Assembly (NCBI RefSeq): GCF_003002815.1
Contig: NZ_PVTF01000014.1
Span: 1 to 64,000 of the forward strand
From: Umezawaea tangerina
GTDB taxonomy: Bacteria; Actinomycetota; Actinomycetes; Mycobacteriales; Pseudonocardiaceae
DNA length: 64,000 nt
Direction of reading: 5' to 3'
Part shown: positions 17,745-49,487 of the stretch, piece after piece
Layout: each line of letters starts with the position of its first letter
Position numbering within the stretch: the stretch's first letter is position 1
Position numbers and translations under genes: made by a program
The notes under the pieces: model-generated
The model's input: only the letters and a program-made list of their open reading frames with translations
Told to the model about the DNA's origin: nothing
The model's database searches: none

Positions 17745-17792
17745 GAACGAATCCCTTCACGGGAGATGTACGAGGCGGTGGTGCGCGCGCAG

Positions 17793-28659: not shown

Positions 28660-31600
28660 ATGGGGGTTGAGAACGCGGTGGATGTCTTCGCGGTGCGTGA
28701 TCGGCTTATCGGTGACTACCGCCGTTACGTCGACGGTTTTCTGCGCGTGCGTGATGAGCGGATCCGCGAGATGGTCGACCGCGAGCTCGACGCCGGGCTG
28801 TTGTGGCCCGAACCGTGGCTTTCCCTCAACCCCGCGTTCGCCAGCGGAGGAGACATCCAGCAGCTGGTAGCCGATGGGGTTCTGCATCCGGCATGCGCCC
28901 AGATCTTCCAGGTGGGGGGACGCTGCCTGCAGTTGCACCAGCATCAGCGGGACGCGGTGGCAGCGGCGCAGTCCGGTGCGAGCTACGTGCTCACTACAGG
29001 CACCGGCTCGGGCAAGAGCTTGTCCTACCTGGTCCCGATCGTCGACCACGTGCTGAGGGAAGGCAGCGGTCGTGGTGTTCGAGCCATCGTCGTCTATCCG
29101 ATGAACGCATTGGCCAACAGCCAGGAGCTGGAACTGGCGAAGTTTCTGGGGGATACCGACCGGCGGGTGACGTTCGCTCGCTATACCGGTCAGGAGAGCG
29201 ACGAGCAGCGAGAGCGGATCCTTCAACATCCGCCGGACGTGCTGCTGACGAACTACGTGATGCTCGACCTGCTGCTGACCCGCCCTGATGAGCGCCGCCG
29301 ATTGGTCGACCAGGCTGGTGAACTGCGGTTTCTTGTGTTGGACGAGTTGCACACCTACCGCGGTCGTCAGGGTGCGGACGTGGCGATGCTCGTCAGGCGC
29401 GTGCGCGACGCGTGCGGCAGCCCATCGGTGCAGTATGTCGGCACGTCCGCGACGCTGGCAGGGCCTGGCACGCTGGAGCAGCAGCGCGTCGCGATTGCGG
29501 AGGTCGCCGAGCGGCTGTTCGGTTCGCGAGTGGAGCCGCAGCATGTGATCGGTGAGACGCTACGCCGGGCCACCCGCAGCGATCCCGCCCCGGACGATGT
29601 CGCCTTGTGCGCCGCGGTCCAGAACGTGGGTCGAGCTGAGGATCTGCGGGATGACCCCCTCGCGGCGTGGGTGGAGTCGACGTTCGGCGTGAGGACGGTC
29701 GACGGGCGGCTCGTCCGCCAGCCGCCCACCAAACTGTCCGACGCGGCATCGGACCTGGCGCGTCGCACAGGGCTGGACGAATCTACGTGCACAGGTTCGC
29801 TTCGGCAGGTGCTCCTTGCCGGCGCGGAACAGCTCGACGATTTCGGCCGTTCGATCTTCGCATTCCGTCTACACCAGTTCATCGGCAAGGGCGACACCGT
29901 CTACTGCTCGATCGAGCCAGAAACCGACCGCTACCTGACAACCCGATATCAAGTGGCGGTTCCGGGCCGCCCTGACGCCGTCCTCGCGCCGCTCGCATTC
30001 TGTCGGGAGTGCGGGCAGGAGTACCTGTCGGTCATCCGCACGTCGGATGGATTCCGGCCTCGACTCCCGGACGATGCCGCCGGTGATGCCCGCAGTGGCT
30101 ACCTGTACGTGGACACCACGACCCCCTGGCCCACTGATCTAACCGAGGTGATGGAGCGCCTCCCTAACGGGTGGCTGGTCGGTCGCCCCGGAGCGGAACA
30201 GGTCGATCCGACCAAAGCTGACCACCTGCCTGTCCAAGTCGTCGTGGGGCCTGACGGACATGAGGTCCTGCACGGGCAGGGAGGCGTCCCCGCGGCGTTC
30301 GTATCCGCCCCATTCCGGTTCTGCCTGCGATGCCGCGTGTCCTACGAGTCCGCGCGCCAACAGGACTTCGCGAAGTTGTCAAGCCTCGGCTCAGAGGGCC
30401 GAAGCTCGGCGACGACGGTTCTGGCCTCGAGCTTGGTGCGAGCACTGCGCGGGGAGGATCTGCGCGATGACGCCCGCAAGGTGTTGTCGTTCACTGACAA
30501 TAGGCAAGACGCCTCACTGCAGGCAGGACACTTCAACGACTTCGTCCAGGTGGGCTTGTTGCGCAGCGCCTTGCACCGGGCCGTGACCGACGCTGGCCCG
30601 GACGGGTTGCGGCACGACACGATGGCCAGTGCGGTCGTCCAGGCGCTGGGGCTACCGCGTGAGGAGTACGCGCTACAACCAGACGTGCGGGGCTTGGCCC
30701 GGCAAGAGACCGAACGGGCACTTCGGGAAGCGGTCTCCTACCGGCTCTATCAGGATCTGCAGCGCGGTTGGCGAATCACCATGCCCAACCTCGAGCAGTC
30801 GGCACTGTTGAGGATCGACTACGTCGCGCTGGACGAAGCGTGCGCCGACCAGGAAATTTGGCGTACCGGTCTCTTGGCCGACGTGTCCACAGAACAGCGT
30901 GAGTCCATGGCACGGGTGCTCCTGGACGAAATGCGCCGATCTTTGGCGATCAGGGTGGCGTCACTGAACGCTGATGGTTTCGAGGCCGTCCGCAATCTGT
31001 CCGACCAGCACCTTCGCGATCCCTGGACGATCGCGGAGGAAGAGCGGTTTCTCGCGGGCCGGGTGTGGCCGCGATCCCGACGGCAGGACGACACCAGAGG
31101 CGACGCGTTCATCTCGGGCCTGTCGGCCTACGGTCGATACCTGCGCCGTCAGCTACGAGGGGACGGACCGCGCATTACCGCGGCCGACACCGAACTGACG
31201 ATCGTCGGCATGTTGGACGCATTGGCGCTCTACGGCCTGGTCACCGTCGTGGAGGAGGACCGGGGTGAGCGTGCGTACCAGCTCACCGCGGCGGCTCTGC
31301 GATGGCTGGCCGGCGATGGCGTCACGCGCGCACCGGACCCTCTGCGTAGCGCACCGGGGGAGACCGGTGCCGCTCCGAACCCGTACTTCGTCGATTTCTA
31401 CAGCACCCTCGCGGCCGGGCTGACCGGTATGCGGTCAGCGGAACACACCGCGCAGGTCCCGGCGAGGATCCGTGAAGAGCGCGAAGAAGCATTCCGTCAC
31501 GCCGGATTGCAGGCCTTGTTCTGTTCTCCCACGATGGAACTGGGTGTCGACATCGCGACCCTCAACGCCGTTGTGCTTCGCAACGTTCCGCCAACCCCTG

Positions 31601-33735
31601 CCAACTACGCTCAGCGCTCGGGCCGCGCGGGACGCGCCGGGCAGCCAGCGATCGTGGTTACCTACTGCACCACCGGTAGCGCGCACGACCAGTATTACTT
31701 CCACCGCTCTGCCCGGATGGTGGCCGGCGCCGTCGCCCCGCCCCGTCTCGACCTCGCTAACGCCGACCTCGTGCGCTCCCACATCCATGCCATCTGGCTG
31801 GCAGAGACACGACAGCCCCTCGGGAAATCCTTGGTCGAGCTGCTGGATGTCGGCGGTGAGGATCCGAGCCTGGAACTCGAGCCGACAGTGCAGCACACCC
31901 TGTCCGATCGCGCGGCGGCAGAACGCGCGCTGCACCGGGCTCATCAGGTGCTGGCGACCGTCGAGGAGATTGCCGACGCGCCCTGGTTCGACGAGGACTG
32001 GATCCGACGCACCGTTGATGACGCGGTCGAGGAGTTCGATCGCGCCTGCGATCGGTGGCGCGAGGCGTTCCGGGCAGCGCGGTCCGAGATGGCTGCGGCG
32101 AACCGGGTGCTTACCGACGCCGCTGCCTCGGCGGACGCCGTCAACAGCGCCAGAGCGCAGTATCTGGAGGCCGCGACGAAGCTGAACCTGCTCCGCAATG
32201 AGTCCGACGATCTGGGCTACAGCGACTTCTACAGCTACCGCTACTTCGCCACCGAGGGCTTCCTACCCGGCTACTCTTTCCCCCGGCTGCCCGTGTCGGC
32301 ATTCATCCCCGCTCGTCCGGGAGGTCGACGTCGCGAGGGCGACTACCTGTCACGCCCGCGGTTCTTGGCGATCAGCGAGTTCGGTCCCGGCGCTTTCGTG
32401 TACCACGAGGGCTCCCGCTACGAGGTCGTGAAGGTGTCGCTACCCTCCCGCGGCGACGCCGACGGCCGATTGGCGCTGGAACGAGCCAAGCGCTGTCAAA
32501 ACTGCGGCACCCTATGGAACGACTCCGACGACCACTGCGACATCTGCAAAGTCGATCTCGGCGCATCCGTCCCGAACCTGCTACGAATGACCACCGCGAC
32601 CACCCGGCGTCGGGAGCGAATCTCCTCCGACGAGGAAGAACGCCGCCGCCAAGGCTTCGACCTCGTCACAGCAGTCGGGCTGCCCACCAGCGGACCCGAC
32701 GCCAGGCGCGAAGCACAGGTGATCACCGCTGACGGCCGTGAGCTCGCGCGGCTCACTTACGCCGACACCGCTACCATCCGCCGGATGAACATTGGCCTGC
32801 GGCGCCGAGCACCCGGTACCCCTGACGGCTACTTCATCAACCCCACCAGCGGCCGCTGGGAGCCGCGGCCTAGCCAGAACCGCCGAGGCCGCGCCGCTGC
32901 CGCAGCGGCTGGGGCGCCGCCCGAACTGGTGATCCCGTACGTCGAAGACCGCCGCAATACTCTCGTCTTGCACTGGTCAGACCAGATCTCCCCGGAGCGG
33001 TTGGCCACCCTGCAATGGGCACTCAAACGGGGAATCCAAGCAGCCTTCGACCTTGAGGACAACGAGCTCGCCGCCGAAGCACTGCCCAACAACCGAGAAC
33101 GACGGCGCATCCTGCTCTACGAATCCGCCGAGGGCGGCGCCGGAGTGCTGCGTAACCTCGTCGCAGGTGAGCATTACGACCTCGGTCTCGTAGCCCGCGA
33201 GGCGCTCGACATCCTGCACTTCAACCAGGACGGTCACGACCGAGGCTCTGCTCAACCCGGCACCGAGCGCTGCGAACGAGCCTGCTACGACTGCCTGCTG
33301 TCCTACGGCAACCAGCCCGACCATCTCCTGCTGGACCGCCACTCGATCGTGACGATGCTGCGTGACCTCGCCGACGCCACCACCGTCCCGACAGGACCCT
33401 CAGTTGGCGCTGTCGTGGCGGACAACCCTGCCAACGGGGTGGTTAGCGACCACCCGTTCATGGAGCTGCTGCGCTCTAAGGGTGCACGACTTCCGGATGC
33501 CGTCGATGTGCTCGTCGAAGAAGCACAGGCACGTCCGCATTTCGTGTACAACCTGGCCGCCGGCCGGTATGGCGTGTTTATCGACGACGGCCACAACGGC
33601 TCCCTCACCGACGAGGACGCCGAAGAACGGCTGCTAGCCCGCCCCCGCTGGCACGCCCTGCGGCTTCGTGAGGGTGAGGACTGGGCCGTGGTCATCGACA
33701 GGATGCCGACCGTATTCGGAGGTGGACGTTCGTGA
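28660..33735 (+). CDS. Giant DEAD/DEAH helicase with DUF1998-type domain
   Basis: 1691 residues from the ATG opening MGVENAVDVFAVRDRL, with AAGGGA upstream; a GTG at 28588 would add 24 residues. The helicase core near residues 100-260 has QHQRDAVAAA, Walker A TTGTGSGKS, DEAH-box variant LDELHTYRG and motif III GTSATLAG. The second RecA lobe comes much later with CSPTMELGVDIATLNAVVLR and QRSGRAGRAGQ. Zinc-like pairs occur at CRECG/CLRC and CQNCG...CDIC. The C-terminus has the DUF1998 signature CERACYDCLLSYGNQ. Large helicase-DUF1998 proteins are cores of antiphage systems: DrmA+DrmB of DISARM, and DruE of Druantia. It heads a five-gene operon. Confidence 0.88.
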   Translation: MGVENAVDVFAVRDRLIGDYRRYVDGFLRVRDERIREMVDRELDAGLLWPEPWLSLNPAFASGGDIQQLVADGVLHPACAQIFQVGGRCLQLHQHQRDAVAAAQSGASYVLTTGTGSGKSLSYLVPIVDHVLREGSGRGVRAIVVYPMNALANSQELELAKFLGDTDRRVTFARYTGQESDEQRERILQHPPDVLLTNYVMLDLLLTRPDERRRLVDQAGELRFLVLDELHTYRGRQGADVAMLVRRVRDACGSPSVQYVGTSATLAGPGTLEQQRVAIAEVAERLFGSRVEPQHVIGETLRRATRSDPAPDDVALCAAVQNVGRAEDLRDDPLAAWVESTFGVRTVDGRLVRQPPTKLSDAASDLARRTGLDESTCTGSLRQVLLAGAEQLDDFGRSIFAFRLHQFIGKGDTVYCSIEPETDRYLTTRYQVAVPGRPDAVLAPLAFCRECGQEYLSVIRTSDGFRPRLPDDAAGDARSGYLYVDTTTPWPTDLTEVMERLPNGWLVGRPGAEQVDPTKADHLPVQVVVGPDGHEVLHGQGGVPAAFVSAPFRFCLRCRVSYESARQQDFAKLSSLGSEGRSSATTVLASSLVRALRGEDLRDDARKVLSFTDNRQDASLQAGHFNDFVQVGLLRSALHRAVTDAGPDGLRHDTMASAVVQALGLPREEYALQPDVRGLARQETERALREAVSYRLYQDLQRGWRITMPNLEQSALLRIDYVALDEACADQEIWRTGLLADVSTEQRESMARVLLDEMRRSLAIRVASLNADGFEAVRNLSDQHLRDPWTIAEEERFLAGRVWPRSRRQDDTRGDAFISGLSAYGRYLRRQLRGDGPRITAADTELTIVGMLDALALYGLVTVVEEDRGERAYQLTAAALRWLAGDGVTRAPDPLRSAPGETGAAPNPYFVDFYSTLAAGLTGMRSAEHTAQVPARIREEREEAFRHAGLQALFCSPTMELGVDIATLNAVVLRNVPPTPANYAQRSGRAGRAGQPAIVVTYCTTGSAHDQYYFHRSARMVAGAVAPPRLDLANADLVRSHIHAIWLAETRQPLGKSLVELLDVGGEDPSLELEPTVQHTLSDRAAAERALHRAHQVLATVEEIADAPWFDEDWIRRTVDDAVEEFDRACDRWREAFRAARSEMAAANRVLTDAAASADAVNSARAQYLEAATKLNLLRNESDDLGYSDFYSYRYFATEGFLPGYSFPRLPVSAFIPARPGGRRREGDYLSRPRFLAISEFGPGAFVYHEGSRYEVVKVSLPSRGDADGRLALERAKRCQNCGTLWNDSDDHCDICKVDLGASVPNLLRMTTATTRRRERISSDEEERRRQGFDLVTAVGLPTSGPDARREAQVITADGRELARLTYADTATIRRMNIGLRRRAPGTPDGYFINPTSGRWEPRPSQNRRGRAAAAAAGAPPELVIPYVEDRRNTLVLHWSDQISPERLATLQWALKRGIQAAFDLEDNELAAEALPNNRERRRILLYESAEGGAGVLRNLVAGEHYDLGLVAREALDILHFNQDGHDRGSAQPGTERCERACYDCLLSYGNQPDHLLLDRHSIVTMLRDLADATTVPTGPSVGAVVADNPANGVVSDHPFMELLRSKGARLPDAVDVLVEEAQARPHFVYNLAAGRYGVFIDDGHNGSLTDEDAEERLLARPRWHALRLREGEDWAVVIDRMPTVFGGGRS

Positions 33736-36548
33736 GTTGGCCAACTGGTTCCCTGGTGCGAGCCCGTGGCCGCGACTGGGTCGTGCTGCCCGACAGCACC
33801 CACGACCTTCTTCTGCTGCGCCCGCTGGGCGGCGGCGCGGACGACATCGCCGGGGTCCTTCCCGACCTTGAACCGGTCCAATCCGCTACCTTCGCACCAC
33901 CGGACCCCGACGATCTCGGTGACGCGGTAAGCGCACGGCTGCTCCGCAGTGCACTGCGACTGGGCTTCCGTTCCAGCGGCGGACCCTTCCGCAGCCTGGC
34001 GCAGATCGCCGTAAGTCCGCGCTCCTACCAACTCGTTCCGCTGCTGATGGCGCTGCGCATGCGCACCGTTCGGCTCCTGATCGCCGACGCGGTCGGCGTC
34101 GGCAAGACCATCGAAGCTGGCCTCATCGTGGCCGAACTGCTCGCGCAGGGCAGCATCGGCCGCTTCACCGTGATGTGCAGCCCCGCCTTGGCCCCGCAGT
34201 GGCAACGGGAACTCGCCGACAAATTCGGGCTCGACGCCGAACTGGTCCTGCCCTCCACCGCAGGGCGCTTGGAACGCGACATGCCCGCAGGAGAATCGCT
34301 GTTCGAGCGCTACCCGTACACGGTGGTATCCACCGACTTCATCAAGTCGACACGGCGCGCGGACGAGTTCATCAGGGCTTGCCCCGGTCTCGTGATCGTT
34401 GACGAAGCACACACCTGCGTCGGGGCCGCCGACGGCCGCACCGCGAGGGCCAGCCAGCAGCGCTACACACTGCTTTCCCGCTTGGCTGCCGACCCCGACC
34501 GGCACCTGTTGCTGCTCACCGCCACCCCGCACAGCGGCAAATCGGAAGCGTTCCGAGCCCTGCTCGGACTGCTGGACAAATCCCTCACGGAGTTGCCCGA
34601 TGACCTGTCCGGCGATGCGCGGCGGCGCGATCGCGAACGTATCGCCCGCCATGTCGTCCAACGTCAACGCGGTGACATCAAGACCTACCTCGACGAAGAC
34701 ACACCTTTCCCCAACCGCATCGCGTTGGAGGACACCTACAAGCTGACCCCGGATTACCGGAAGCTGTTCGACCACGTCCTGCGCTACGCCCGCGAGACGG
34801 TGCGTGACTCGGCCGGAGGCCCAGTGCACCAACGGGTCCGCTGGTGGTCGATCCTGGCGCTGCTCCGGGCAATGGCATCATCGCCAGCCGCTGCCGCCGC
34901 GACCCTGCGCAACCGCAGCGGCGAAGACGACGTCACCAGCGTCGAGGAGGCCGACATTCGCGGTCAGGCTGGCGTTTTGGATCTCCCCGACGAAGACGAA
35001 GCCGTCGACGGCCGCGACACCACTGCCGGAGCGCTGCCTGCAGACGACACCCCACGTGCTCGCTTGCTGCGCCTGGCCAAGGACGCCGATCGACTGCGTG
35101 GCGCCAAAGACTCGAAGCTCAAGAAGGGAATCGGGCTCGTCCGGGACCGCGTGGAAGCAGGCGACGCCATCGTGGTGTTCTGCCGCTACATCGCCACCGC
35201 CGAGTACGTAGGAACCGCCCTGCGCCAAGCCCTGCCGGACGTCGAAGTCGCGTGGGTCACCGGTGTACAACCACCGGAGGAACGTGAACGCCGAATCTCC
35301 GAACTCGGCAAAGCCGAGCGACGAGTCTTGGTGGCCACCGACTGTCTGTCCGAAGGCGTCAACCTGCAAGACCACTTTACCGCAGTCCTGCACTACGACC
35401 TGTCCTGGAACCCCACCCGCCAAGAGCAACGCGAAGGCCGCGTCGATCGGTTCGGCCAGCGCGCCGCCGACGTTTATGCGATCACCTACTACGGTGAAGA
35501 CAACGGCATCGACGGTCTCGTCCTCGACGTGCTGCTGCGCCGCCACCGCGCCATCCAAGCCGACACCGGGGTCGCCGTTCCCGTCCCGCAAGACAGCGAC
35601 GCCGTACTCACCGCCGTGCTGGAAGGCGTGCTACGCGCCGAGACCGGAGGCCAACTCCAGCTGGAAGGCGTCGAGGAAACCGCCCGCAACAGCCTGCATC
35701 AACGGTGGGACGACGCGGCGCAACGGGAGAAGCGCTCCCGCAGCCTGTTCGCCCAGGAACAGATCAAACCCGACGAGGTCTCCCGCGAGGTCGACGCTCT
35801 GCGCGCCGCGCTCGGCGGCCCGGCCGAAACCGAGACCTTCGTCGTGGACGCGCTCACCTCGCTCCGGGCCACCCTGACCACCACGCCCGCTGGCTATGTC
35901 GCCGCATTGGACGGTCTGCCACCGACACTGAAGGAAGAACTCGGTGGTGCCACGGATCTCCCGCTCGTGCGGATCCCGCCCGCCCCTGATAGGGGAGCGG
36001 TACTTACCCGCACCGACCCCACCGTGGAAACCCTTGCCCGCTACATCCTCGACACCGCCCTCGACCCCGATGCAGGGACCGACCGACCCGCCCGGCGGAG
36101 CGGTGTTCTCCTCACCGACGCTGTCGACATACGCACAACCCTGCTGCTGCTGCGCTATCGCCTGCAGCTCACGTTGCCCACCGCGACCGAACGTCGCTCG
36201 ATGGTCGTGGAAGAAGCTCGACTGCTCGCCTTCCGCGGTAGTGCTGGCGCACCTGAATGGCTGCCCGACAACGAGGTCGCTGTGTTGCTCGAGGCCCGCT
36301 CCGCTGGCAACCTCCCCCGCGATCTGGCGGCCGAAGACATCCGCCGGGTGCAATCCCGTCTCACCCGCCTCGATCCCCATCTGGACGACGAGGGAGACCG
36401 ACTGGCCGCCGAACTCCTCTCCAGCCACCGCCGAGTACGCGAAGCCGCTGGCAGCACCGGTGAACTCATCCGCCGCGGCCTCACCGTGACAGCCCAACGC
36501 CCCGCCGACATTCTCGGCGTATACCTCTACCTGCCCGCGGGGACATGA
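33732..36548 (+). CDS. SNF2-type helicase (DrmD-like)
   Basis: 938 residues. The start GTG overlaps the previous stop (GTGA). Motifs in order: LLIADAVGVGKTIEAGLI (about 117-134), LVIVDEAHTCVG (DEAH, about 221), LLLTATPHSGK, then in the second lobe VLVATDCLSEGVNLQ and QREGRVDRFGQ. This is the RapA/SNF2 superfamily-2 arrangement. The 350-residue C-terminal extension is unrecognised. DISARM class 1 carries a SNF2 helicase (DrmD) next to its methylase, which is the same neighbour relation as here. It would translocate on double-stranded DNA without necessarily unwinding it. Confidence 0.85.
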   Translation: MSWPTGSLVRARGRDWVVLPDSTHDLLLLRPLGGGADDIAGVLPDLEPVQSATFAPPDPDDLGDAVSARLLRSALRLGFRSSGGPFRSLAQIAVSPRSYQLVPLLMALRMRTVRLLIADAVGVGKTIEAGLIVAELLAQGSIGRFTVMCSPALAPQWQRELADKFGLDAELVLPSTAGRLERDMPAGESLFERYPYTVVSTDFIKSTRRADEFIRACPGLVIVDEAHTCVGAADGRTARASQQRYTLLSRLAADPDRHLLLLTATPHSGKSEAFRALLGLLDKSLTELPDDLSGDARRRDRERIARHVVQRQRGDIKTYLDEDTPFPNRIALEDTYKLTPDYRKLFDHVLRYARETVRDSAGGPVHQRVRWWSILALLRAMASSPAAAAATLRNRSGEDDVTSVEEADIRGQAGVLDLPDEDEAVDGRDTTAGALPADDTPRARLLRLAKDADRLRGAKDSKLKKGIGLVRDRVEAGDAIVVFCRYIATAEYVGTALRQALPDVEVAWVTGVQPPEERERRISELGKAERRVLVATDCLSEGVNLQDHFTAVLHYDLSWNPTRQEQREGRVDRFGQRAADVYAITYYGEDNGIDGLVLDVLLRRHRAIQADTGVAVPVPQDSDAVLTAVLEGVLRAETGGQLQLEGVEETARNSLHQRWDDAAQREKRSRSLFAQEQIKPDEVSREVDALRAALGGPAETETFVVDALTSLRATLTTTPAGYVAALDGLPPTLKEELGGATDLPLVRIPPAPDRGAVLTRTDPTVETLARYILDTALDPDAGTDRPARRSGVLLTDAVDIRTTLLLLRYRLQLTLPTATERRSMVVEEARLLAFRGSAGAPEWLPDNEVAVLLEARSAGNLPRDLAAEDIRRVQSRLTRLDPHLDDEGDRLAAELLSSHRRVREAAGSTGELIRRGLTVTAQRPADILGVYLYLPAGT

Positions 36549-39500
36549 TGCGCACCTACACCGTCAGCACTATCCGCACCGTCGGCGGTCTGCTACCTCC
36601 TGAAACCCTCGAAGCCATTACCGCCAGCGAACTCGATGGGCTGAAGCCCAGTACCTACGGCCTCGCCGAGTCCGAAACGGTACGCGAAGCAGCCAACCGC
36701 TCCTGGGAGCGACTCCGGGGAGCCTGGCTTGCTTTCCGACGCACTGTTCCACCTGGAGAGGACACCGGTTACCAGGTCGAAACCACCCGATCCCAATGGC
36801 TTCGCGTTCTGTTCGATGAACTCGGTTACGGTCGTCTTCCCGCTGTCCCGGCAGGCGGTCTCGCCGTCGCCGACACCACCTATCCGCTGAGTCACATATG
36901 GCAGTGCACCCCGTTGCATCTGCTAGGAGTTGGTGTCGATCTCGACCGTCTCAATCCCGGAGTATCCGGTGCAGCCCGCCGAGCGCCGCACTCCATGATG
37001 CAAGAACTCCTCAACCGCTCTCCAGACCACCTCTGGGGCATCCTCACCAATGGTCTCGAGCTACGCCTCCTCCGCGACTCGGCTTCACTCGTCCGTCAGG
37101 CATATGTTCAATTCGACCTCGCTGGCATGTTCGACGGCGAGGTATTCGCCGATTTCGCATTGATGTGGCAGCTCTGCCACGCCAGTCGCGTCGAACCTCA
37201 ACCAGACCCTTCAGCCGCGCCCAGCACCTGCTGGCTGGAACGATGGCGCGAAGACTCCACTACCCGCGGAACCCGTGCACTCAAACGTCTCTCCGCTGGA
37301 GTGAAGCAGACACTTAACATTCTTGGTGCCGGATTCCTTGCCGCAACACCCGCGATCCGAGACCAACTTCGCCAAGGCACACTCACCCCAGGGGCCTACC
37401 ACCGGCTAGTGCTTCGCGTGGTCTACCAACTGCTCGTCCTGTTTGTCGCTGAAGACCGCAACCTCCTCCACGATGATAAGGCCACAGCCGAACAGCGTCG
37501 TCGCTACACCGAACACTTCTCCACCGAACGACTCCGACGCAAAGCCCAACGCCGCCACACGACCGAACGCCATACTGACATGTGGACCGCGCTACGCCTG
37601 ATCATCCGCAGCCTCGGCAACGAAGAAGGGCAACCAGCGCTCGGCCTTCCCGGACTCGGTGGCATATACGACCAAGGCACACTCGGGCCCCTCGAAGACG
37701 CAATCCTTACCAACCGCGATCTCCTCGCAGCTGTTCGCGCACTCTCCCTCACCCGCGACGAGACTGGCATGCCTCGAGCGGTGGACTACCGCAACCTCGG
37801 CGCCGAGGAACTCGGCAGCGTCTACGAATCACTACTCGAACTCGTCCCCGACTACGACGACCGGACAGGCCGCTATACACTTGACGTCGCAGCAGGAAAC
37901 GATCGCAAGGAGACCGGTTCCTACTACACCCCTTCGGACCTCGTCGATGTCCTGTTGGACGAGACGCTGAAACCGGTCCTCGACGAAGCGGCGGCCAGCC
38001 GTGACCCCGAGGCAGCACTGCTCGCTATCACTGTCTGCGACCCTGCCTGTGGTTCTGGACACTTCCTCGTCGCCGCAGGGCGACGCATCGCACGACGACT
38101 TGCACAGCATCGCACAAGTGAGCGTGAACCACCTGAGCCAGCGCTTCGTGACGCTATGCGCGATGTCATCAGGCATTGTCTCTACGGTGTCGACCTCAAT
38201 CCCCTCGCAGCTGAGCTGGCAAAGGTAGCGCTGTGGCTCGAAGCTCTCGAACCGGGTCGCCCCTTGTCATTCCTCGATGCGCACATCAAGGTCGGCAACG
38301 CCCTACTCGGAACTACTGGGCCAGAACTCGTCGATGATGGTCTGCCTGAAGCAGCCTTCACATCTCTGACTGGTGATGACTCGGCCATTCTGACGAAGCG
38401 CAAGCGTCGTAACCGTGAAGAATCTATTCACTCTGAACAAGGCGAGTTCGACTTCGGTGCACCTTCACAAGACTTCGGTAGGGCGTTTCAGGATGTGGCC
38501 AGTGCCCCTGAAAACACCCTACTTGACGTACACGCTAAAGCTGCAGCCTGGCAGGCTGCAGAAAAAGAGCCTGCACTTATCCGTGCTCGACTCGTGGCAG
38601 ACGCTTGGTGTGCGGCTTTCCTCTGGCCTCACTTGCCGGATGCCACACCTGGTCTTACTGTTGGTGACATTCGTCGAATCGCCAGCCAGGGACAATCGGG
38701 GATCACGTTCGATCAGGTAGTCCAGGTTGGCTACCTCTGTGAAGAGTACCGGTTCTTCCACTGGCACCTTGAGTTTCCTGAGATCTTTCCCCGCGGATTT
38801 ACCTGCATTGTGGGTAATCCGCCATGGGAACAGGTCGAATTTCAAGACAAAGAGTTCTTTGCGACCGTCGCGCCGGAGATTGCCTCGGCTGAGACGACGG
38901 CCAAGCGTAAGAATCTCATAGTCGCGCTACAGTCGCTGCGTCCAGCCTTGTGGGATCGGTATCAGCGTGCACTTCGATTTGTCGATGCCGAGAAGTGTTT
39001 TTATCAAGCAAGTGGGCGATTCCCAACCACCGCGCGCGGTCGTATAAACACCTATGCGCTGTTTGCTGAAGTTGGTACTTCTATCGTTAGTCAGGCTGGT
39101 CGGGTCGGTCTCATATTGGAAACGGCAATAGCTACCGGTGATTCCACAGCGCTTTTCTTTAGCAAGCTTGTCGAGACTAGCACTGTCGCATGTTTCTTCG
39201 ACTTTGAGAACGAAGCCAAGATATTTCCAAGTGTAACCAATAAGTTTCGATTTGCGATCCTTGTTGCGACAGGTGGAGTGCCGATCGCAGAAGCTTCGTT
39301 TGCTTTCTCGGTTCGTCATGTACGCGACCTTCCTATGCGTCGATTTGCGCTGCAACCCTCCGAGGTGCTACAGGTAAACCCGAATAGCGGAACACTGCCG
39401 GTATTTCGAAGCCGCCGCGATGCTGAGATTACCATCGGAATTCATGGTCGCGTTCCGATTTTTTGGGCGAAGGGTGCGGGTGAGGACAACCCGTGGGACG

Positions 39501-40477
39501 TCGACTTTGATCAAGGCTTGTTTAATATGTCGTCCAAATCGGATCTATTTTCCGACATGGAGACACTTGTTCAGGAAGGCTGGAGGTCTGAGGGCGGAAG
39601 CTTTTTGCGGAGTAACGAACGCATGATGCCGCTGTTTGAGGCTAAAATGATTCACCATTTTGACCACCGCTGTGCTACGTATGAAGGGGCCACGCAAGCT
39701 CAGCTAAACAAGGGGACGCTACCTAAGCTGACAGTTGAACAACATCGAGATCCGTTTATCGTATCTCTGGCTCGCCACTGGGTTCATCAATCACTTGTAT
39801 ACAAAGAGCTGAAAAATAGGTGGGATCGCAGCTGGCTGCTTATTTGGCGTGACGTCGGGCCATCGGCGAATGAGCGATCAATGATTGCAACTGTGATGCC
39901 GATTGCAGCTGTAGGCCACACGGCGCCGCTGATCTACGTTCAGAACGAACCGGTTGCGTGCCTACAGGCCAACTTGGCAGCGCTTGTCCTGGATTACTGT
40001 GCGAGGGTAAAACTGAGTGGAAGTCACCTTACCTTCGGTCTGGTTAGGCAGCTGCCAGTTCTTTCTCCTTCCGTCTATTCGAACAAGTTGCAGTGGAGTA
40101 ATGAACCTGCAACTCTGGGGGACTGGATTACCTCACGCGTTCTCGAGTTGTCGTACACTGCGTGGGACCTCCAGTCATATGCCCAACATTTGGGCGACAA
40201 AGGTGCACCATTTCAATGGGATGAGAGTCGGCGTGCCCAGATGCGCGCCGAGCTAGATGCCGCCTACCTGCATCTCTACGGGCTGAGCCGAGAAGATGCT
40301 GAACATGTAATCGATTCTTTCTTTGTGCTGCGCAAGAATGAACAAAGAAAGTATGAGGAGTTTCGTACCAAGAAACTTGTCCTGACTGCGTACGACGCGA
40401 TGACCGAAGGTGAGTTCGTCAGTCCGCTCGATCCCGCACCAGGACAGGGAGAGCGTCACCCGGACCGGAGGTCGTAG
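36545..40477 (+). CDS. Large Eco57I-type DNA methyltransferase (DrmMI-like)
   Basis: 1310 residues, start overlapping the preceding stop (ATGA). The N-terminal 430 residues are helical. They are followed by GSVYESLLELVPDYDD and KETGSYYTPSDLVDVLL, AdoMet motif I CDPACGSGHFLVAAGRRIAR (about 498), CLYGVDLNPLAAELAKVALW and the catalytic motif IV NPPWEQV (about 758), as in N6-adenine type IIG/Eco57I enzymes. The C-terminal 450 residues should hold target recognition. No PD-(D/E)xK nuclease motif was seen at the N-terminus, so it is probably modification-only. From about 38400 the G+C and codon usage drop sharply until the stop, unlike the rest of the operon. Confidence 0.88.
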   Translation: MMRTYTVSTIRTVGGLLPPETLEAITASELDGLKPSTYGLAESETVREAANRSWERLRGAWLAFRRTVPPGEDTGYQVETTRSQWLRVLFDELGYGRLPAVPAGGLAVADTTYPLSHIWQCTPLHLLGVGVDLDRLNPGVSGAARRAPHSMMQELLNRSPDHLWGILTNGLELRLLRDSASLVRQAYVQFDLAGMFDGEVFADFALMWQLCHASRVEPQPDPSAAPSTCWLERWREDSTTRGTRALKRLSAGVKQTLNILGAGFLAATPAIRDQLRQGTLTPGAYHRLVLRVVYQLLVLFVAEDRNLLHDDKATAEQRRRYTEHFSTERLRRKAQRRHTTERHTDMWTALRLIIRSLGNEEGQPALGLPGLGGIYDQGTLGPLEDAILTNRDLLAAVRALSLTRDETGMPRAVDYRNLGAEELGSVYESLLELVPDYDDRTGRYTLDVAAGNDRKETGSYYTPSDLVDVLLDETLKPVLDEAAASRDPEAALLAITVCDPACGSGHFLVAAGRRIARRLAQHRTSEREPPEPALRDAMRDVIRHCLYGVDLNPLAAELAKVALWLEALEPGRPLSFLDAHIKVGNALLGTTGPELVDDGLPEAAFTSLTGDDSAILTKRKRRNREESIHSEQGEFDFGAPSQDFGRAFQDVASAPENTLLDVHAKAAAWQAAEKEPALIRARLVADAWCAAFLWPHLPDATPGLTVGDIRRIASQGQSGITFDQVVQVGYLCEEYRFFHWHLEFPEIFPRGFTCIVGNPPWEQVEFQDKEFFATVAPEIASAETTAKRKNLIVALQSLRPALWDRYQRALRFVDAEKCFYQASGRFPTTARGRINTYALFAEVGTSIVSQAGRVGLILETAIATGDSTALFFSKLVETSTVACFFDFENEAKIFPSVTNKFRFAILVATGGVPIAEASFAFSVRHVRDLPMRRFALQPSEVLQVNPNSGTLPVFRSRRDAEITIGIHGRVPIFWAKGAGEDNPWDVDFDQGLFNMSSKSDLFSDMETLVQEGWRSEGGSFLRSNERMMPLFEAKMIHHFDHRCATYEGATQAQLNKGTLPKLTVEQHRDPFIVSLARHWVHQSLVYKELKNRWDRSWLLIWRDVGPSANERSMIATVMPIAAVGHTAPLIYVQNEPVACLQANLAALVLDYCARVKLSGSHLTFGLVRQLPVLSPSVYSNKLQWSNEPATLGDWITSRVLELSYTAWDLQSYAQHLGDKGAPFQWDESRRAQMRAELDAAYLHLYGLSREDAEHVIDSFFVLRKNEQRKYEEFRTKKLVLTAYDAMTEGEFVSPLDPAPGQGERHPDRRS

Positions 40478-40479
40478 AA

Positions 40480-42720
40480 GTGCCCTTCCAGAACAGTCGC
40501 CTCTACGCCGCTGCTCAGCGTGTCGTTGACGCGGGCCTGTCCCACGATGACTCCGTATTTACTCCTGGTCGTCAAGTATGGACCAATGAGTCGGCCAGCG
40601 ACCTCCTCCAGCGGTTCGTGAACGCACCCGAACTTGGATCTGCCAGCTTCACTGAGAAGCTGGAACGCCAGCTCGCCGGTGCTCCACAAGAGACAGTCCA
40701 ACTGGCAGCTGAACTGGTGTACTTGCATCTGCTTGCACCGAACGATTTCGGCGGCGCGGCTAAACGCGAGCTCTTGCTGACAGTCTTGGCCTTGGCACCC
40801 CAGCCGACCGCGGTGCCGACGGAACTCGACGTGGCACTTGACAGCGGGTTCGGCCGTGCGGGCACCGCATACCGGACCTACCGCGATCGCCAAATCGCCT
40901 GGCTGGTCCGATTCGTTGTGGCATGGAAGGCACTCGCACCAGAGGCTCGACGGGCTGCCCTCGCTGACCCCTGGGCATTCCGCGGCATCGCCGACTCGAT
41001 CCCGATCAACAGCGCATACAGCCAACGCAACGTGCTGCTGCACCTGGCGTTTCCTGACACCTTCGAACGCATCGTGTCACGTCGCCACAAGCAACTGATC
41101 ATCGAAGGTCTCGCCAAGGATCTGCCGGATCCGACCGGAGACGAGGACCGTGATCTTGCCGTGTTGCGGACCGCGCTTGAACGCCGGAGGGGCGACCACA
41201 TCGACTTCTACGACAGGGACATTGAGAGGCGCTGGCGGCCACGCACTAGTTCCGGAGACGGGGAAACTGAGCTGCGTGGCTGGCTCGTGCGCGGAGCCAA
41301 CGTGCATGGTCGCAATCTCGTCTCCGAGTGGTTGACCGAAGGGTACTGCTCGCTCGCCTATCCCGACCTGGGCGAACTACCAGCGGGGCGCACCCGATCC
41401 CAGATCGACGCAAAGCTCGCTGAGCGGCTCCCCGAGCTCACGAGCAAACAGCGGTCCATCCACGTTGGTGTGCTCAACCGGTTCCTCAACGAGATGCAGC
41501 CGGGCGACATCGTCGCCACGGTCGACGGCGCCAAGGTCTATGTCGGCACGATCACCAGCGCGCCGATGTGGACTGAGACACCTGAACATCTGAGCAACCG
41601 CCGCCGCACGGTCCAATGGGCCAACGCGAACACACCGTTCGCCCGAGATCAGCTCCCTGGCTCAACCAGGGATCGTCTGTCCGGCCAGATGACCGTCAGC
41701 AGCCTCGGCTCCGAGGTCGCCGAGTTCGCCTCATTGACCGGCATCGATCCTGACCTCGACCCGGCCGAAGTGACCCCCGAACCACCGGTCAACGAACCAG
41801 TCGTGCTACCGGAACCCACCGCTGAACTTGCAGATGAGCTGCTCATCGACCTCGACTGGCTGTCCGAGACAGTTGACCTCCTACGGGAAAAGAAGCAGAT
41901 CATCCTCTACGGACCACCAGGAACAGGAAAGACCTACATCGCCCAAGAGCTGGCGCAGTTCCTCACCGAACAGACCGGCGGCGAACATCGCCTCGTCCAG
42001 TTCCACCCGTCCTACGCCTACGAGGACTTCTTCGAAGGCTTCCGGCCGCAACGCGGCGCGACACCCGGCACCGTCTCCTTCGAGTTGGAAGACGGCCCGC
42101 TGAAGCTGCTCGTCAACGAAGCCAACAAAGACGTCACCCGCGCCTACGTGTTGATCATCGACGAGATCAACCGCGCCAACCTTGCCAAGGTCTTCGGCGA
42201 GCTCTACTTCCTGCTCGAGTACCGCAGCCGCTCAGTGCAGCTGCAGTACTCACCAACCGAGGACTTCAGGCTCCCACCCAACCTCTATCTCATCGGCACC
42301 ATGAACACCGCGGATCGATCGATCGCACTCGTCGACTCGGCCATGCGTCGGCGGTTCTCCTGGCAGGGGCTCTTCCCCGGAGAGACACCCGTCGCCGACA
42401 TGCTGCGTCGATGGCTGCACGCGTACGGCCTGCCAGCCGACCGCGCCGACCTGCTCGATGCCCTCAACGAACGCATCGCCGACCGCGACGCCGCGATCGG
42501 CCCCTCATACTTAATGAATCCACGGGTTGGCACCGAGGCAGGGCTCGCCCGCATCTGGAAACACCACATCATGCCGCTCCTGGAAGAACGGCACATCGGC
42601 GAGAATGTCGATCTCCATGCCCTCTACGGCCTTGACACCCTCCGCAACGGCACCACCCTGCGCGCCCGCACGCGCGAGAAATCCGTACCAGAGGAGGAGA
42701 TCGGCGAGCCGCCAGCGTGA
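40480..42720 (+). CDS. mcrB: McrB-like GTPase
   Basis: 746 residues, GTG start 2 nt after the methyltransferase stop, with GGAGG upstream. The C-terminal AAA+ module has Walker A ILYGPPGTGKTYIAQELA (about 476), VQFHPSYAYEDFFEGFRP, Walker B LIIDEINRANLAKVFGEL (about 558) and the McrB-specific MNTADRS (608), followed by the arginine-rich AMRRRFSW. The N-terminal 430 residues replace the usual McrB DNA-reading domain. They include a segment (GDIVATVDGAKVYVGTITSA) resembling EVE/PUA-like base-reading folds, which often recognise modified bases. With McrC it should form a GTP-driven DNA translocase-nuclease. Confidence 0.9.
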   Translation: MPFQNSRLYAAAQRVVDAGLSHDDSVFTPGRQVWTNESASDLLQRFVNAPELGSASFTEKLERQLAGAPQETVQLAAELVYLHLLAPNDFGGAAKRELLLTVLALAPQPTAVPTELDVALDSGFGRAGTAYRTYRDRQIAWLVRFVVAWKALAPEARRAALADPWAFRGIADSIPINSAYSQRNVLLHLAFPDTFERIVSRRHKQLIIEGLAKDLPDPTGDEDRDLAVLRTALERRRGDHIDFYDRDIERRWRPRTSSGDGETELRGWLVRGANVHGRNLVSEWLTEGYCSLAYPDLGELPAGRTRSQIDAKLAERLPELTSKQRSIHVGVLNRFLNEMQPGDIVATVDGAKVYVGTITSAPMWTETPEHLSNRRRTVQWANANTPFARDQLPGSTRDRLSGQMTVSSLGSEVAEFASLTGIDPDLDPAEVTPEPPVNEPVVLPEPTAELADELLIDLDWLSETVDLLREKKQIILYGPPGTGKTYIAQELAQFLTEQTGGEHRLVQFHPSYAYEDFFEGFRPQRGATPGTVSFELEDGPLKLLVNEANKDVTRAYVLIIDEINRANLAKVFGELYFLLEYRSRSVQLQYSPTEDFRLPPNLYLIGTMNTADRSIALVDSAMRRRFSWQGLFPGETPVADMLRRWLHAYGLPADRADLLDALNERIADRDAAIGPSYLMNPRVGTEAGLARIWKHHIMPLLEERHIGENVDLHALYGLDTLRNGTTLRARTREKSVPEEEIGEPPA

Positions 42721-43889
42721 GGCGCCTGACCCTACCCGAACACAAAGCCCGAGCGTTCAGTCCGATCGCCCGGTCCACAGCCGACGCCCTCACCGCCACC
42801 GGAGTGGTCAAAGTCAGCGCAGACCTCGACGGCCGCACCGTGCTCAAGGCGTCCTCATTCGTCGGCGTACTCCGATGTGACGAGATTGAACTTCGGATCA
42901 CCCCGAAGATCGGCATCCACCGGCTCCTGTGGCTTCTCGGCCACGCCCGCGACCCCAACGGCTGGCGCGACGACGACATTGTGGATCTCTCCATCATCGA
43001 CGACTTGGTCGCCGCAGTTGCCGTGTCCTTCCACGCCGCGGTCCGCCAAGCTCTCACTCACGGAGTCCTCCAGGGCTATCGCACTGTTGAGGAAGCGCTC
43101 CCGCTCCTGCGTGGTCGCCTTCGTGAATCCGACCAACTTCGCCGTCGCCTTGGTCTGGTCGTACCCCTCGAAGTCCGCTACGACGACTACACCGTCGACA
43201 TACCCGAGAATCGGATTCTGCTCGCGGCAGCCCGCCGCCTGCTCCGTATCCCAGGCCTTCCATCCGCGACCCACGCTGGACTTCGTCAACTGCTGACAAC
43301 GCTCGCCGACGTCACGCCCCTCGTTGCAGGAGAGAAGCCGCCCGACACCGTGCCGAGCAGGCTGACGCGGCACTACCAACCTGCGCTTCGGCTGGCCCGC
43401 ATCGTTCTCGCAGGACGCAGCATCGACCAGCCGCCCGGATCCACCGCGGCCAGCGGATTCCTGTTCGATCTCAACAAGGCGTTCGAGGACTGGCTCACGG
43501 TGACACTCCGCCGCGCACTCGAACCCCACGGAGGGCGGCTGCGCGATCAGTATCCCAGCCACCTCGACATCCGGCGGCAACTACGCATCCGGCCCGATCT
43601 CGTCTGGGAAAGGCAATCTCGTCCCACCGCGGTCCTCGACGCCAAGTACAAGCGCGTGCAGGACAACGATCGACCTCATGCCGATCTGTACCAGATGCTC
43701 GCGTACTGCACCGCTCTCGGCGTCCCCGAAGGGCACCTCATCTACGCTTCCGGTGATATACCCGGTTCCCATACGGTGCGCGAGGCCGGCACGCGACTCC
43801 GGACCTGGGTACTTGACTTAACTCGGCCGACGGACCACATCCTGGCGCAAGTCAGCAGCATCGCGCATGCAGTCGTCCTGACCGCCTAG
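42717..43889 (+). CDS. mcrC: McrC-like nuclease subunit
   Basis: 390 residues with a GTG start overlapping the McrB stop (GTGA). It has a beta-rich N-terminal domain, the family-typical LPLLRGRLRESDQLRRRLGL and YDDYTVDIPENRILLAAARR, and a C-terminal PD-(D/E)xK nuclease: IRPDLVWE followed by AVLDAKYKR (D about 308, K about 310), then DLYQMLAYC. McrC binds the McrB ring, stimulates its GTPase and cuts the DNA. All nuclease residues are present. It is the last gene of the operon. Confidence 0.9.
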   Translation: MRRLTLPEHKARAFSPIARSTADALTATGVVKVSADLDGRTVLKASSFVGVLRCDEIELRITPKIGIHRLLWLLGHARDPNGWRDDDIVDLSIIDDLVAAVAVSFHAAVRQALTHGVLQGYRTVEEALPLLRGRLRESDQLRRRLGLVVPLEVRYDDYTVDIPENRILLAAARRLLRIPGLPSATHAGLRQLLTTLADVTPLVAGEKPPDTVPSRLTRHYQPALRLARIVLAGRSIDQPPGSTAASGFLFDLNKAFEDWLTVTLRRALEPHGGRLRDQYPSHLDIRRQLRIRPDLVWERQSRPTAVLDAKYKRVQDNDRPHADLYQMLAYCTALGVPEGHLIYASGDIPGSHTVREAGTRLRTWVLDLTRPTDHILAQVSSIAHAVVLTA

Positions 43890-44009
43890 GCGATGCGAGT
43901 CGATGACCGACCTCGAGCTGACAACACGGCTCCCTAAATCCAAACGTGCGAGCCCGGCATGGTGCACAATGATTGGTTCGCCTTCGTCCGAAATGAACGG
44001 TTGTCACCG

Positions 44010-46198: not shown

Positions 46199-46506
46199 CG
46201 GATCTCCTTGGCGAAGAAAGCCGTGGCGCGCTTGAGGATCTCCACATCGTCGGTCAGGCGGCGATTCTCCCGCCGCAGCCTCGCGAGCTCCTCGCGCTCG
46301 TCGGTGGTCAGCCCGTCGGCTCGGGTACCGGCGTCGCGTTCGGTCTGCACTACCCACTGCCGCACCGCGGTCTCGGTCAGGTCGAAGTCCTTCGCGACCT
46401 GCCCCACCGACCTGTCACCCCGCGAGCACAGCTCGACGATCTCGGTCTTGAACTCTGGGGTGAACGACCGCCGAGGCCGCCGCTTCTTCTTGCCCATGGG
46501 CTCCAT
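46195..46506 (-). CDS. IS3 transposase OrfA
   Basis: 103 residues from the ATG at 46506 (MEPMGKKKRRPRRSF). HTH_8-type DNA-binding domain (FTPEFKTEIVELCSRGDRSV, then FDLTETAVRQWVVQTE) and a leucine-zipper-like tail (RLRRENRRLTDDVEILKRA). OrfB starts inside its stop codon, so coupling is by GTGA overlap rather than programmed frameshift. Confidence 0.9.
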   Translation of the reverse strand: MEPMGKKKRRPRRSFTPEFKTEIVELCSRGDRSVGQVAKDFDLTETAVRQWVVQTERDAGTRADGLTTDEREELARLRRENRRLTDDVEILKRATAFFAKEIR

Positions 46507-46568
46507 GATGGGACATCCCTCCGGGGACACGCGTCCCCTGATCTCAGATGTCCGTCAAAACGGGTCAA

Positions 46569-49136: not shown

Positions 49137-49487
49137 GACGACCTCCAGAGGAAGTGGTGATGTCGTCCGTTGTCCGCCGTCACCTGCTTGATCGCAAGTC
49201 TGGATGTAGACAGCACAGGTCCTTGGGGTGCATGGAAACATCAACTCGAACGCCCACTTGAGAACTTCGGCAGTGCGTGCGTCCTGCTAGTCATTTGGGC
49301 AACCTGACGAACGCTAGCTCCGACTCGCACCGTTTATGCAGGTCGTCTCGGCCGAATCAGCGGACGAGGTGGCGAGGGTCGGCAGGGTCGTAGATGCCCT
49401 AGCCGAATGCCTCCATGATGTCCAAGTCGTACGACGATGATCGTTGCTGCTGTTGAGGGGCAGGAGTCCGTCCATCATATGGTTCAT

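What the first reader, a model, noticed from the sequence alone, without database searches (positions are those of the whole stretch)
28660..43889. Composite defence operon: helicase-DUF1998 + SNF2 + methylase + complete McrBC
Seen: five genes, four junctions, all 4-nt overlaps or a 2-nt gap, so one transcript and coupled translation. Known: DISARM combines a helicase (DrmA), a DUF1998 protein (DrmB), a SNF2 helicase (DrmD) and a large adenine methylase (DrmMI), usually with a phospholipase-D nuclease (DrmC). Here DrmA and DrmB functions appear fused in one 1691-residue protein, also reminiscent of DruE of Druantia. No PLD protein is present, and an intact McrB-McrC pair fills the nuclease place. 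McrBC normally cuts modified DNA, which would be self-destructive beside a resident methylase unless McrB reads a different mark. A modification-sensing and modification-setting system in one operon is the best candidate here for an undescribed system.
Basis: partly seen in the sequence, partly recalled or inferred. Interest (0 to 1): 0.92.

Follow-up and report, generated by a model that had tools for sequence, protein, structure and literature searches.

The report
ARMADA defence operon carrying McrBC nuclease
This is a bacterial anti-virus gene set of the recently named ARMADA Type I kind, joined in one operon to a McrBC DNA-cutting pair; the pairing recurs in many bacteria and is already on record, but here the helicase's own cutting domain looks worn out, leaving McrBC as the only intact-looking cutter that was recognised.

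Summary
The five genes are real: YprA/DUF1998 helicase, SNF2 helicase, PglX-like adenine methylase, McrB, McrC, joined by three 4-nt overlaps and one 2-nt gap. A sixth gene follows mcrC here and in the three closest relatives. It is not DISARM or Druantia: gene order and a YprA tree place it in ARMADA Type I (PMC12458937), whose authors already report frequent McrBC linkage. In my census McrB directly follows the core in 38 of 132 usable loci, within 6.5 kb in 14 more, and is co-inherited with it. Not found in the passages I read: (1) the helicase's C-terminal Vsr-like nuclease keeps only 2 of 5 conserved positions here; such loss is commoner beside McrBC (26 of 38 against 18 of 75), but kinship-aware support is mixed; (2) 37 of 38 adjacent McrBs match a profile of an EVE/YTH-like reader domain; (3) the methylase specificity region differs sharply between close relatives while the McrB reader does not. 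Best reading: two-sided restriction, a self-marking core plus McrBC against foreign-modified DNA. Known kind, interesting variant.

The parts
28660..33735 (+). YprA-family DEAD/DEAH helicase with DUF1998/MZB domain, ARMADA Type I group (1691 aa; frame open from GTG 28588)
33448..33729 (+). degenerate Vsr/DUF559-like nuclease domain at the C-terminus of the YprA helicase (2 of 5 conserved E/D/D/H/D positions kept)
   Evidence: relaxed dN/dS
33732..36548 (+). SNF2/RapA (BrxHII-like) helicase
36545..40477 (+). PglX/DrmMI-like N6-adenine DNA methyltransferase (DPACGSG, NPPW); first ~440 residues unassigned
38717..40216 (+). putative target-recognition region of the methylase (residues about 725-1224), 46-64% identical to close relatives against 84-94% over residues 25-624; GC about 0.51-0.56
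40480..42720 (+). McrB, NxxD-type GTPase with two N-terminal modules
40480..41265 (+). McrB N-terminal all-helical module of unknown function (other modules, e.g. Mrr_N or DUF4357, in other ARMADA-linked McrBs)
41266..41814 (+). EVE/YTH-like (PUA superfamily) putative modified-base reader domain of McrB
42717..43889 (+). McrC PD-(D/E)xK nuclease (RPDLV...DAKYK)
43959..44861 (+). sixth co-directional gene, no Pfam, NCBIfam or PADLOC match, homologue directly after mcrC in the three closest relatives

Best explanation
An ARMADA Type I phage-defence operon with an integral McrBC arm, giving two-sided restriction. The PglX-like methylase marks host DNA at N6-adenine in a motif set by an exchangeable recognition region; the YprA and SNF2 translocases act on DNA that lacks this mark or exposes single strands; the McrB hexamer, through its EVE/YTH-like domain, binds DNA carrying a modification that the host does not make (most likely modified cytosine), translocates with GTP and lets McrC cut. 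Shown: genes, order, co-inheritance, catalytic motifs of methylase, McrB and McrC present, loss of catalytic-type positions in the YprA nuclease, reader fold (predicted, moderate confidence), sharp difference of the methylase specificity region between close relatives. Inferred: mark, target base, self/non-self logic, and how unmarked DNA is stopped if the YprA nuclease is dead (block without cutting as in BREX, or handing over to McrC).
For: Order Y-S-M with YprA first as published for ARMADA Type I; a YprA tree puts the window among 20 ARMADA-I-like rows on one side of a 97* branch, apart from two ARMADA II rows, one Druantia III and one DISARM row. McrB adjacent in 38 of 132 usable loci, 14 more within 6.5 kb. 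Methylase-McrB junction within 20 nt in 33 of 38 and exactly -4 in 14 of 38, against 0.49 and 0.015 for random positions measured the same way (nearest in-frame start is used, so distances lean short). McrBC label needs 12 changes on the SNF2 tree against a mean of 32.6 (least 25) in 100 shuffles; SNF2 and McrB GTPase distances correlate, r 0.87, n 36. Five genes under purifying selection against three 93%-identical relatives, dN/dS 0.06-0.14. Reader: the first 13 Foldseek hits are YTH domains and two proteins that I recall as EVE-family, probability 0.75-0.99; a profile of it matches 37 of 38 adjacent McrBs. Precedent for complementary layers: BREX plus BrxU (PMC8565348, abstract).
Against: No experiment. 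In 80 of 132 usable loci no McrB was seen, so McrBC is optional for the core. YTH domains are best known as m6A readers, and one archaeal McrB YTH binds 6mA (PMC7641849, PMC12707154, passages): if this one read the host's own mark, the cell would attack itself. The YprA nuclease is intact in 11 of 38 McrBC-adjacent loci and 9 of 14 with McrBC further off, and dead in 18 of 75 without. A nuclease in the unassigned first ~440 residues of the methylase (as in Type IIG enzymes) was not ruled out; Pfam recognises none.
Confidence: 0.55

Rival explanations
1. McrBC is the recruited effector nuclease of ARMADA itself: helicases and methylase decide self from non-self, and McrC replaces the decayed Vsr-like nuclease of the helicase in one integrated machine.
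For: Window nuclease keeps 2 of 5 positions; its last 130 residues show dN/dS 0.14-0.25 against about 0.05 for the rest. Dead (3 or fewer of 5) in 26, intact in 11, one lost in 1 of 38 McrBC-adjacent loci against 18, 50, 7 of 75 without (Fisher 2.4e-5, not corrected for kinship). With a stricter cut chosen after seeing the data (2 or fewer of 5): 20 of 38 against 3 of 75, dependent-evolution model p 0.002. With the first cut the full dependent model gives LR 11.0, p 0.027. In the 15 scored loci with an ArmD-like gene (two of them weak matches) and no McrBC the nuclease is intact in 15.
Against: Kinship-aware pair tests are not significant: 8 pairs, 2.6 same way, 0.1 other way, median p 0.25; 2.8 and 0.1, median p 0.25 with the stricter cut; on the smaller first set 7 pairs, p 0.375, and 11 pairs, 3.7 against 1.4, p 0.625 when McrBC further off was counted too. 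A two-degree model with the first cut gives p 0.094. A Streptomyces group lacks E and H without adjacent McrBC; 11 of 38 adjacent and 9 of 14 more distant McrBC loci keep an intact domain. The H position shifts between alignments for some rows.
Confidence: 0.25
2. LlaJI/PcaRCI-like restriction-modification: McrBC cuts unmethylated DNA at a sequence that the operon's methylase protects.
For: Such McrBC-type RM systems exist (PMC8989522 passages; PMC12707154 passage on LlaJI); methylase and McrB are adjacent and closely spaced here.
Against: The methylase recognition region differs strongly between close relatives while McrB modules do not; a cognate nuclease should change with it.
Confidence: 0.1
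3. Chance neighbours: an ARMADA Type I system and an unrelated Type IV McrBC that happened to land in one island.
For: No McrB seen in 80 of 132 usable ARMADA-I-like loci; the neighbourhood holds conjugation-type genes and an integrase and an IS3-like pair (by eye).
Against: Same order in 12 other named genera, junctions, 12 tree changes against 32.6 shuffled, r 0.87 co-inheritance; reader domain at 16 of 16 ARMADA-linked and 9 of 34 unlinked McrC places of the host family (counted by hand; Fisher).
Confidence: 0.05
4. A DISARM-Druantia hybrid.
For: DruE3 profile 335 bits on the helicase, DrmMI 210 bits on the methylase, DrmD 277-299 bits on the SNF2 protein.
Against: NCBIfam DISARM cut-offs missed by far; no PLD match and no separate DrmB among the operon proteins; YprA tree separates it from the DruE and DrmA rows; ARMADA explains the mixed similarity.
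Confidence: 0.03

Closest known systems
ARMADA Type I (Bell et al. 2025 preprint, PMC12458937)
   Same: Gene trio and order (YprA-like helicase first, then BrxHII/RapA-like helicase, then PglX-like methylase); YprA group; [quoted passage not shown] McrBC linkage of such a cassette noted by the authors.
   Different: Type I helicases are described with a predicted active C-terminal Vsr nuclease; here it is degenerate. McrB reader, methylase specificity difference and sixth gene are not in the sections and passages I read; supplements were not available.
McrBC linked to a DISARM-like cassette (Bell et al. 2024, PMC11090510, Figure 2 green group)
   Same: NxxD-type McrB beside a DISARM-like cassette; most likely the same association.
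   Different: In the passages seen it is a sentence and a figure legend; details were left to a forthcoming publication that my searches did not show.
ARMADA Type II (for example L280, E. coli plasmid)
   Same: Same three core proteins.
   Different: Order SNF2-methylase-YprA-UvrD helicase, separate YprA branch, no McrBC annotated in the stretch seen.
DISARM class 1
   Same: SNF2 helicase, large adenine methylase, helicase plus DUF1998 function.
   Different: DrmA and DrmB separate, DrmC PLD nuclease; NCBIfam scores here far below the curated cut-offs.
Druantia III (DruE-DruH)
   Same: Fused helicase-DUF1998 protein related to DruE.
   Different: No DruH among the ten window proteins scanned with PADLOC; DruE row falls outside the ARMADA-I-like group.
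BREX with BrxU (PMC8565348, abstract and outline seen)
   Same: A methylation-based system paired with a modification-dependent nuclease as complementary layers.
   Different: BrxU is GmrSD-type, the core is BREX.

Membership tests
ARMADA Type I | YprA-like helicase of the ARMADA Type I group | tested here: met
   Tree of 24 rows: 20 ARMADA-I-like rows incl. window on one side of a 97* branch, apart from ARMADA II, DruE and DrmA rows. Quick method, long branches flagged; the published Type I reference protein was not in the set.
[quoted passage not shown]
   published order
ARMADA Type I | predicted active Vsr-type nuclease at the YprA C-terminus (described for the type, but the type is named and split by clade and gene set) | tested here: not met
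   Domain recognisable (65.6 bits with the profile of intact homologues) but E, first D and H of the E/D/D/H/D pattern lost. 47 of 127 scored usable loci keep 3 or fewer of 5.
ARMADA Type I | BrxA-like, beta-barrel ZBM and MarR-like insertions in the helicase | not tested
   would need a model of the whole 1691-aa protein (limit 1200 aa)
DISARM | separate DrmA and DrmB, DrmC PLD nuclease, DrmD/DrmA above NCBIfam cut-offs | tested here: not met
   DrmA 14.8/950, DrmD 299/610; fused helicase-DUF1998, no PLD match among the operon proteins
Druantia III | DruE plus DruH | tested here: not met
   no DruH match in the ten window proteins scanned with PADLOC (other window genes were not scanned); DruE row separate
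Type IV McrBC | AAA+ GTPase motifs (Walker A/B, NxxD) and PD-(D/E)xK McrC | tested here: met
   translations show GPPGTGKT, NTAD, RPDLV...DAKYK; motif counts over adjacent loci (McrB 36 of 38, McrC pattern 31 of 36)
Type IV McrBC | cleavage depends on a modified base | not testable with these tools
   EVE/YTH-like reader suggests it
LlaJI/PcaRCI-like McrBC restriction-modification | methylase protects the sequence that McrB recognises | tested here: inconclusive
   Methylase recognition region differs without change of McrB modules, which speaks against it

The most novel reading that the evidence does not exclude
In a branch of ARMADA Type I the helicase's own nuclease has been retired and the McrBC machine, with a near-invariant EVE/YTH-like reader, has become the effector of one integrated system: the methylase and helicases define self, and DNA they engage is passed to McrB-McrC. 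This would be a restriction system whose Type IV nuclease is wired to a methylation-based discriminator rather than acting alone.
Probability: 0.22. Interest if true: 0.75.

Novelty: new variant of a known kind. Interest (0 to 1): 0.45.

Why it matters
ARMADA was named in 2025, and its McrBC partner is mentioned but not analysed in the texts I could read. The locus makes a concrete question testable: how can a DNA-marking enzyme and a probable mark-cutting nuclease live in one operon without suicide? The census also shows an ArmD-like helicase, described for Type II, behind Type I cores.

Tried and rejected
DISARM and Druantia filing: rejected on curated cut-offs and tree. PADLOC's best name for the SNF2 protein, DpdE (927 bits over full length), rejected as a name: NCBIfam DpdE gives 191 bits against a cut-off of 500, and the model evidently covers ARMADA-type SNF2 proteins (inference). 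I made no search for deazaguanine genes.

Simple version of 'McrBC replaces the dead nuclease': the raw table is strong, but pair tests are not significant in any of four runs (twice, 90, 132) and model tests range from p 0.094 to 0.027 with the cut fixed beforehand and 0.002 with a cut chosen afterwards; it stays a rival.

Identifying modules by sequence: profile searches of solved structures gave nothing better than E 0.3 for the middle McrB domain, the first McrB module and the nuclease domain (Vsr 1cw0 at E 0.38 for the last). The whole-McrB fold search was swamped by AAA+ hits, so the N-terminal half was folded apart. The base-binding pocket could not be examined: model coordinates are not in the Python box. 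No promoter or terminator signal above the shuffles.

14 near-copies (97% SNF2 identity) were dropped; of 169 kept loci 37 were not usable (no methylase seen or under 3 kb after it); 5 of the 132 usable lack a scored YprA C-terminus. 'None' means no McrB profile hit in the sequence available: 80 loci with at least 3.1 kb, 72 with 5 kb or more, 28 with 6.5 kb or more; very divergent McrB could be missed. 'Dead' means at most 3 of 5 positions kept; one-lost loci were left out of the tests; the call for some rows, mostly at the H column, depends on the alignment (differ for some).
Full report
What is there. The window holds five co-directional genes with the coordinates given: 28588/28660-33735, 33732-36548, 36545-40477, 40480-42720 and 42717-43889. 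Junctions are 4-nt overlaps except a 2-nt gap before the fourth gene. Family scans give a DEAD/DEAH helicase with the DUF1998 (MZB) domain, an SNF2/RapA-like helicase, an Eco57I/PglX-like adenine methylase, an McrB GTPase and an McrC nuclease. The methylase has DPACGSG and NPPW; the translations show GPPGTGKT and NTAD (the NxxD type) in McrB and RPDLV...DAKYK in McrC. A sixth gene starts 69 nt after mcrC; it matches no Pfam, NCBIfam or PADLOC family, and a homologue directly follows mcrC in the three closest relatives (93% identical in the SNF2 protein).

Host and setting. Two genomes of the same genus have no SNF2 match at the threshold used. The flanks hold conjugation-type genes (15102-19697, Pfam TraG/TrwB/T4SS) and a tyrosine recombinase (47931-49244) and, by eye, an IS3-like pair, so the operon is probably mobile cargo.

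What it belongs to. The helicase is closest to DruE in PADLOC (335 bits). Both facts are what Bell and colleagues report for ARMADA (PMC12458937; I read the outline, sections 7, 12 and 26, and passages): a YprA-like helicase most similar to Druantia's with two further genes shared with DISARM class 1, and in Type I generally the YprA gene first. A tree of 24 YprA proteins puts the window in a group of 20 ARMADA-I-like rows on one side of a 97* branch, apart from two ARMADA II rows (one an E. coli plasmid locus with the published SNF2-methylase-YprA-UvrD order), one Druantia III and one DISARM row (quick tree, long branches flagged). The same authors wrote in 2024 and 2025 that a DISARM-like cassette with a YprA helicase is frequently linked to canonical McrBC (PMC11090510 and PMC12458937, passages). 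The composite is therefore on record as an association; the forthcoming analysis they announce did not turn up in my searches, which cover open-licence PubMed Central papers only.

Is the McrBC linkage meaningful. A YprA ORF lies within 3 kb upstream of the SNF2 gene in 161 of 166. McrB follows the methylase directly in 38 of 132 and within 6.5 kb in 14 more; in 80 none was seen, 72 of them with 5 kb or more to look at. Named carriers of the adjacent form with McrC are Frankia, Actinokineospora, Flavimobilis, Microbispora, Mycolicibacter, Thermocrispum, Amycolatopsis, Rhodococcus, Phytoactinopolyspora, Arthrobacter, Homoserinimonas and a Nocardioides plasmid; outside Actinomycetota a Chloroflexota plasmid has a more divergent McrB and McrC. 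The methylase-McrB junction is within 20 nt in 33 of 38, much like the core junctions (35 and 32 of 38). Because the nearest in-frame start is taken, random positions give 0.49; an exact 4-nt overlap, found in 14 of 38, is expected at 0.015. On the SNF2 tree the McrBC label needs 12 changes against 32.6 on average in 100 shuffles, and SNF2 and McrB GTPase distances correlate (r 0.87, n 36, Mantel p 2e-4). Against three close relatives all five genes are under purifying selection (dN/dS 0.06-0.14). This is a co-inherited operon, not chance; but the core plainly does without an adjacent McrBC in most loci.

The helicase's nuclease. ARMADA helicases are described with a predicted active Vsr-type nuclease at the C-terminus. 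The 19 intact homologues scanned match DUF559 and MTES_1575 (19 of 19 each) and Vsr (5 of 19) and share an E, D, D, H, D pattern. The window keeps 2 of 5; its three closest relatives keep 3, 2 and 3. The domain is still recognisable (65.6 bits; an intact one that belongs to the profile scores 183.5) but the last 130 residues evolve with dN/dS 0.14-0.25 against about 0.05 for the body. So McrC is the only nuclease of the operon that was recognised and looks intact; the first ~440 residues of the methylase are unassigned and were not tested for nuclease activity (Pfam finds none). Across loci the domain is dead (3 or fewer of 5) in 26, intact in 11 and one-lost in 1 of 38 McrBC-adjacent loci, against 18, 50 and 7 of 75 without McrBC; in loci with McrBC further off it is dead in 3, intact in 9, one-lost in 2 of 14. 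Fisher p is 2.4e-5 but ignores kinship. Independent pairs go the same way 2.6 times and the other way 0.1 times out of 8 (median p 0.25); earlier runs on fewer loci were weaker still, p 0.375 and, counting distant McrBC, 0.625. A dependent-evolution model is preferred with p 0.027, a simpler one with p 0.094. With a cut chosen after seeing the counts (2 or fewer of 5), 20 of 38 against 3 of 75 are strongly degenerate and both models give p 0.002, while the pair test stays at 0.25. Contrary cases matter: a Streptomyces group has lost E and H without adjacent McrBC, and 11 of 38 adjacent carriers are intact. I treat replacement of the nuclease by McrBC as suggestive.

The McrB reader. Ahead of the GTPase, McrB has two modules. 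The second (residues 263-445) is modelled with good confidence (mean pLDDT 88.9, pTM 0.67 for the N-terminal half) and its first 13 structural matches are YTH domains of m6A readers and two proteins (1zce, 2gbs) that I recall as EVE-family members (Foldseek probability 0.75-0.99, E 0.05-0.4, none at or below 0.001). Its profile matches 37 of 38 adjacent McrBs (the profile was built from this set). In 200 genomes of the host family it accompanies 16 of 16 McrC places within 15 kb of an ARMADA SNF2 gene and 9 of 34 others (my hand count; Fisher 8e-7). The first module varies: the window's helical module in 23 of 38, Mrr_N in 6 and DUF4357 in 4 of 18 members scanned. The GTPase half matches solved McrB.

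Self-harm or not. EVE and YTH readers in McrB-type proteins are reported for modified cytosines or 6mA (PMC7641849, PMC12707154, passages). Between the window and its close relatives, methylase residues about 725-1224 drop to 46-64% identity while residues 25-624 are at 84-94%, in step with a GC dip to 0.51-0.56 at 38.25-40.75 kb: most simply the recognition region was exchanged. McrB's reader region stayed at 75-88%. A nuclease that depended on that motif, either to cut it or to be blocked by it, should not tolerate this. This also argues against a LlaJI- or PcaRCI-type restriction-modification reading (PMC8989522 passages).

How it most likely works. Two layers in one operon: the ARMADA core handles DNA without the host mark, McrBC handles DNA with a foreign mark, as BREX and BrxU do together on a plasmid (PMC8565348, abstract). 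How the core stops unmarked DNA without its own nuclease is open: a block without cutting, or handing over to McrC. DruE, a studied relative, loads on 3' single strands (PMC13192584, passages), which fits a DNA-structure sensor.

Another partner in the same place. A homologue of the E. coli ArmD-type helicase follows the Type I core in 26 of 132 usable loci (24 with more than 500 bits), in 11 of them together with McrBC; in the passages read it is the follow-up gene of Type II. In the 15 scored loci with it and no McrBC (two weak matches among them) the YprA nuclease is intact. The 3' end of Type I operons thus looks like a slot for alternative effectors.

Verdict. A well-supported member of a kind named in 2025, with a published McrBC association, showing a variant with a degenerate helicase nuclease.

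Noticed in passing
window 61968-64000 continuing to contig position 69416 (L281:1969-9417): A second methylase-plus-SNF2 pair (PADLOC Type IIG-like methylase 622 bits; SNF2 protein nearest to an 'HKD+Snf2' model, 155 bits) about 18 kb downstream on the same strand: another probable defence locus, not ARMADA.
   Followed up: partly
window 15102-19697 (-) and 47931-49244 (-): Conjugation-type ATPases (TraG, TrwB/T4SS-like) upstream and a tyrosine recombinase downstream suggest an integrative conjugative element carrying the operon.
   Followed up: partly
window 45308-46530 (-): IS3-like transposase pair (by eye) between the operon and the recombinase.
   Followed up: no
window 53160-54179 and 54260-56689: A distant paralogue of the sixth gene (E 2.6e-12), followed by an 809-aa protein; neither has a PADLOC match.
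   Followed up: partly
window 26397-27518: A stand-alone N6/N4 methylase-like gene just upstream of the operon.
   Followed up: no
L027, L034, L042, L047, L048, L255, L277 and others: ArmD-like helicase genes follow ARMADA Type I cores in 26 of 132 usable loci, although described as typical of Type II.
   Followed up: partly
L043, L046, L055, L056, L066 (Streptomyces): Streptomyces copies have a longer YprA (about 2,110-2,150 aa frames) with a degenerate nuclease and no McrB profile hit in the sequence held.
   Followed up: no
L005/L284 (Nocardioides sp. JS614 pNOCA01): A DISARM system and an ARMADA-McrBC operon lie side by side on one conjugative plasmid with a cytosine methylase between them.
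   Followed up: no
L006 (Deinococcus radiodurans MP1): ARMADA-like locus with a split methylase and McrBC a few kb on; a paper reports that attempts to delete this mcrBC kept a wild-type copy (PMC10085245, passage).
   Followed up: no
PADLOC model PDLC02853: Named DpdE but matches the window's ARMADA-type SNF2 protein over full length (927 bits) and the ARMADA II one at 135 bits; probably a misnamed model that will mislabel such loci.
   Followed up: partly
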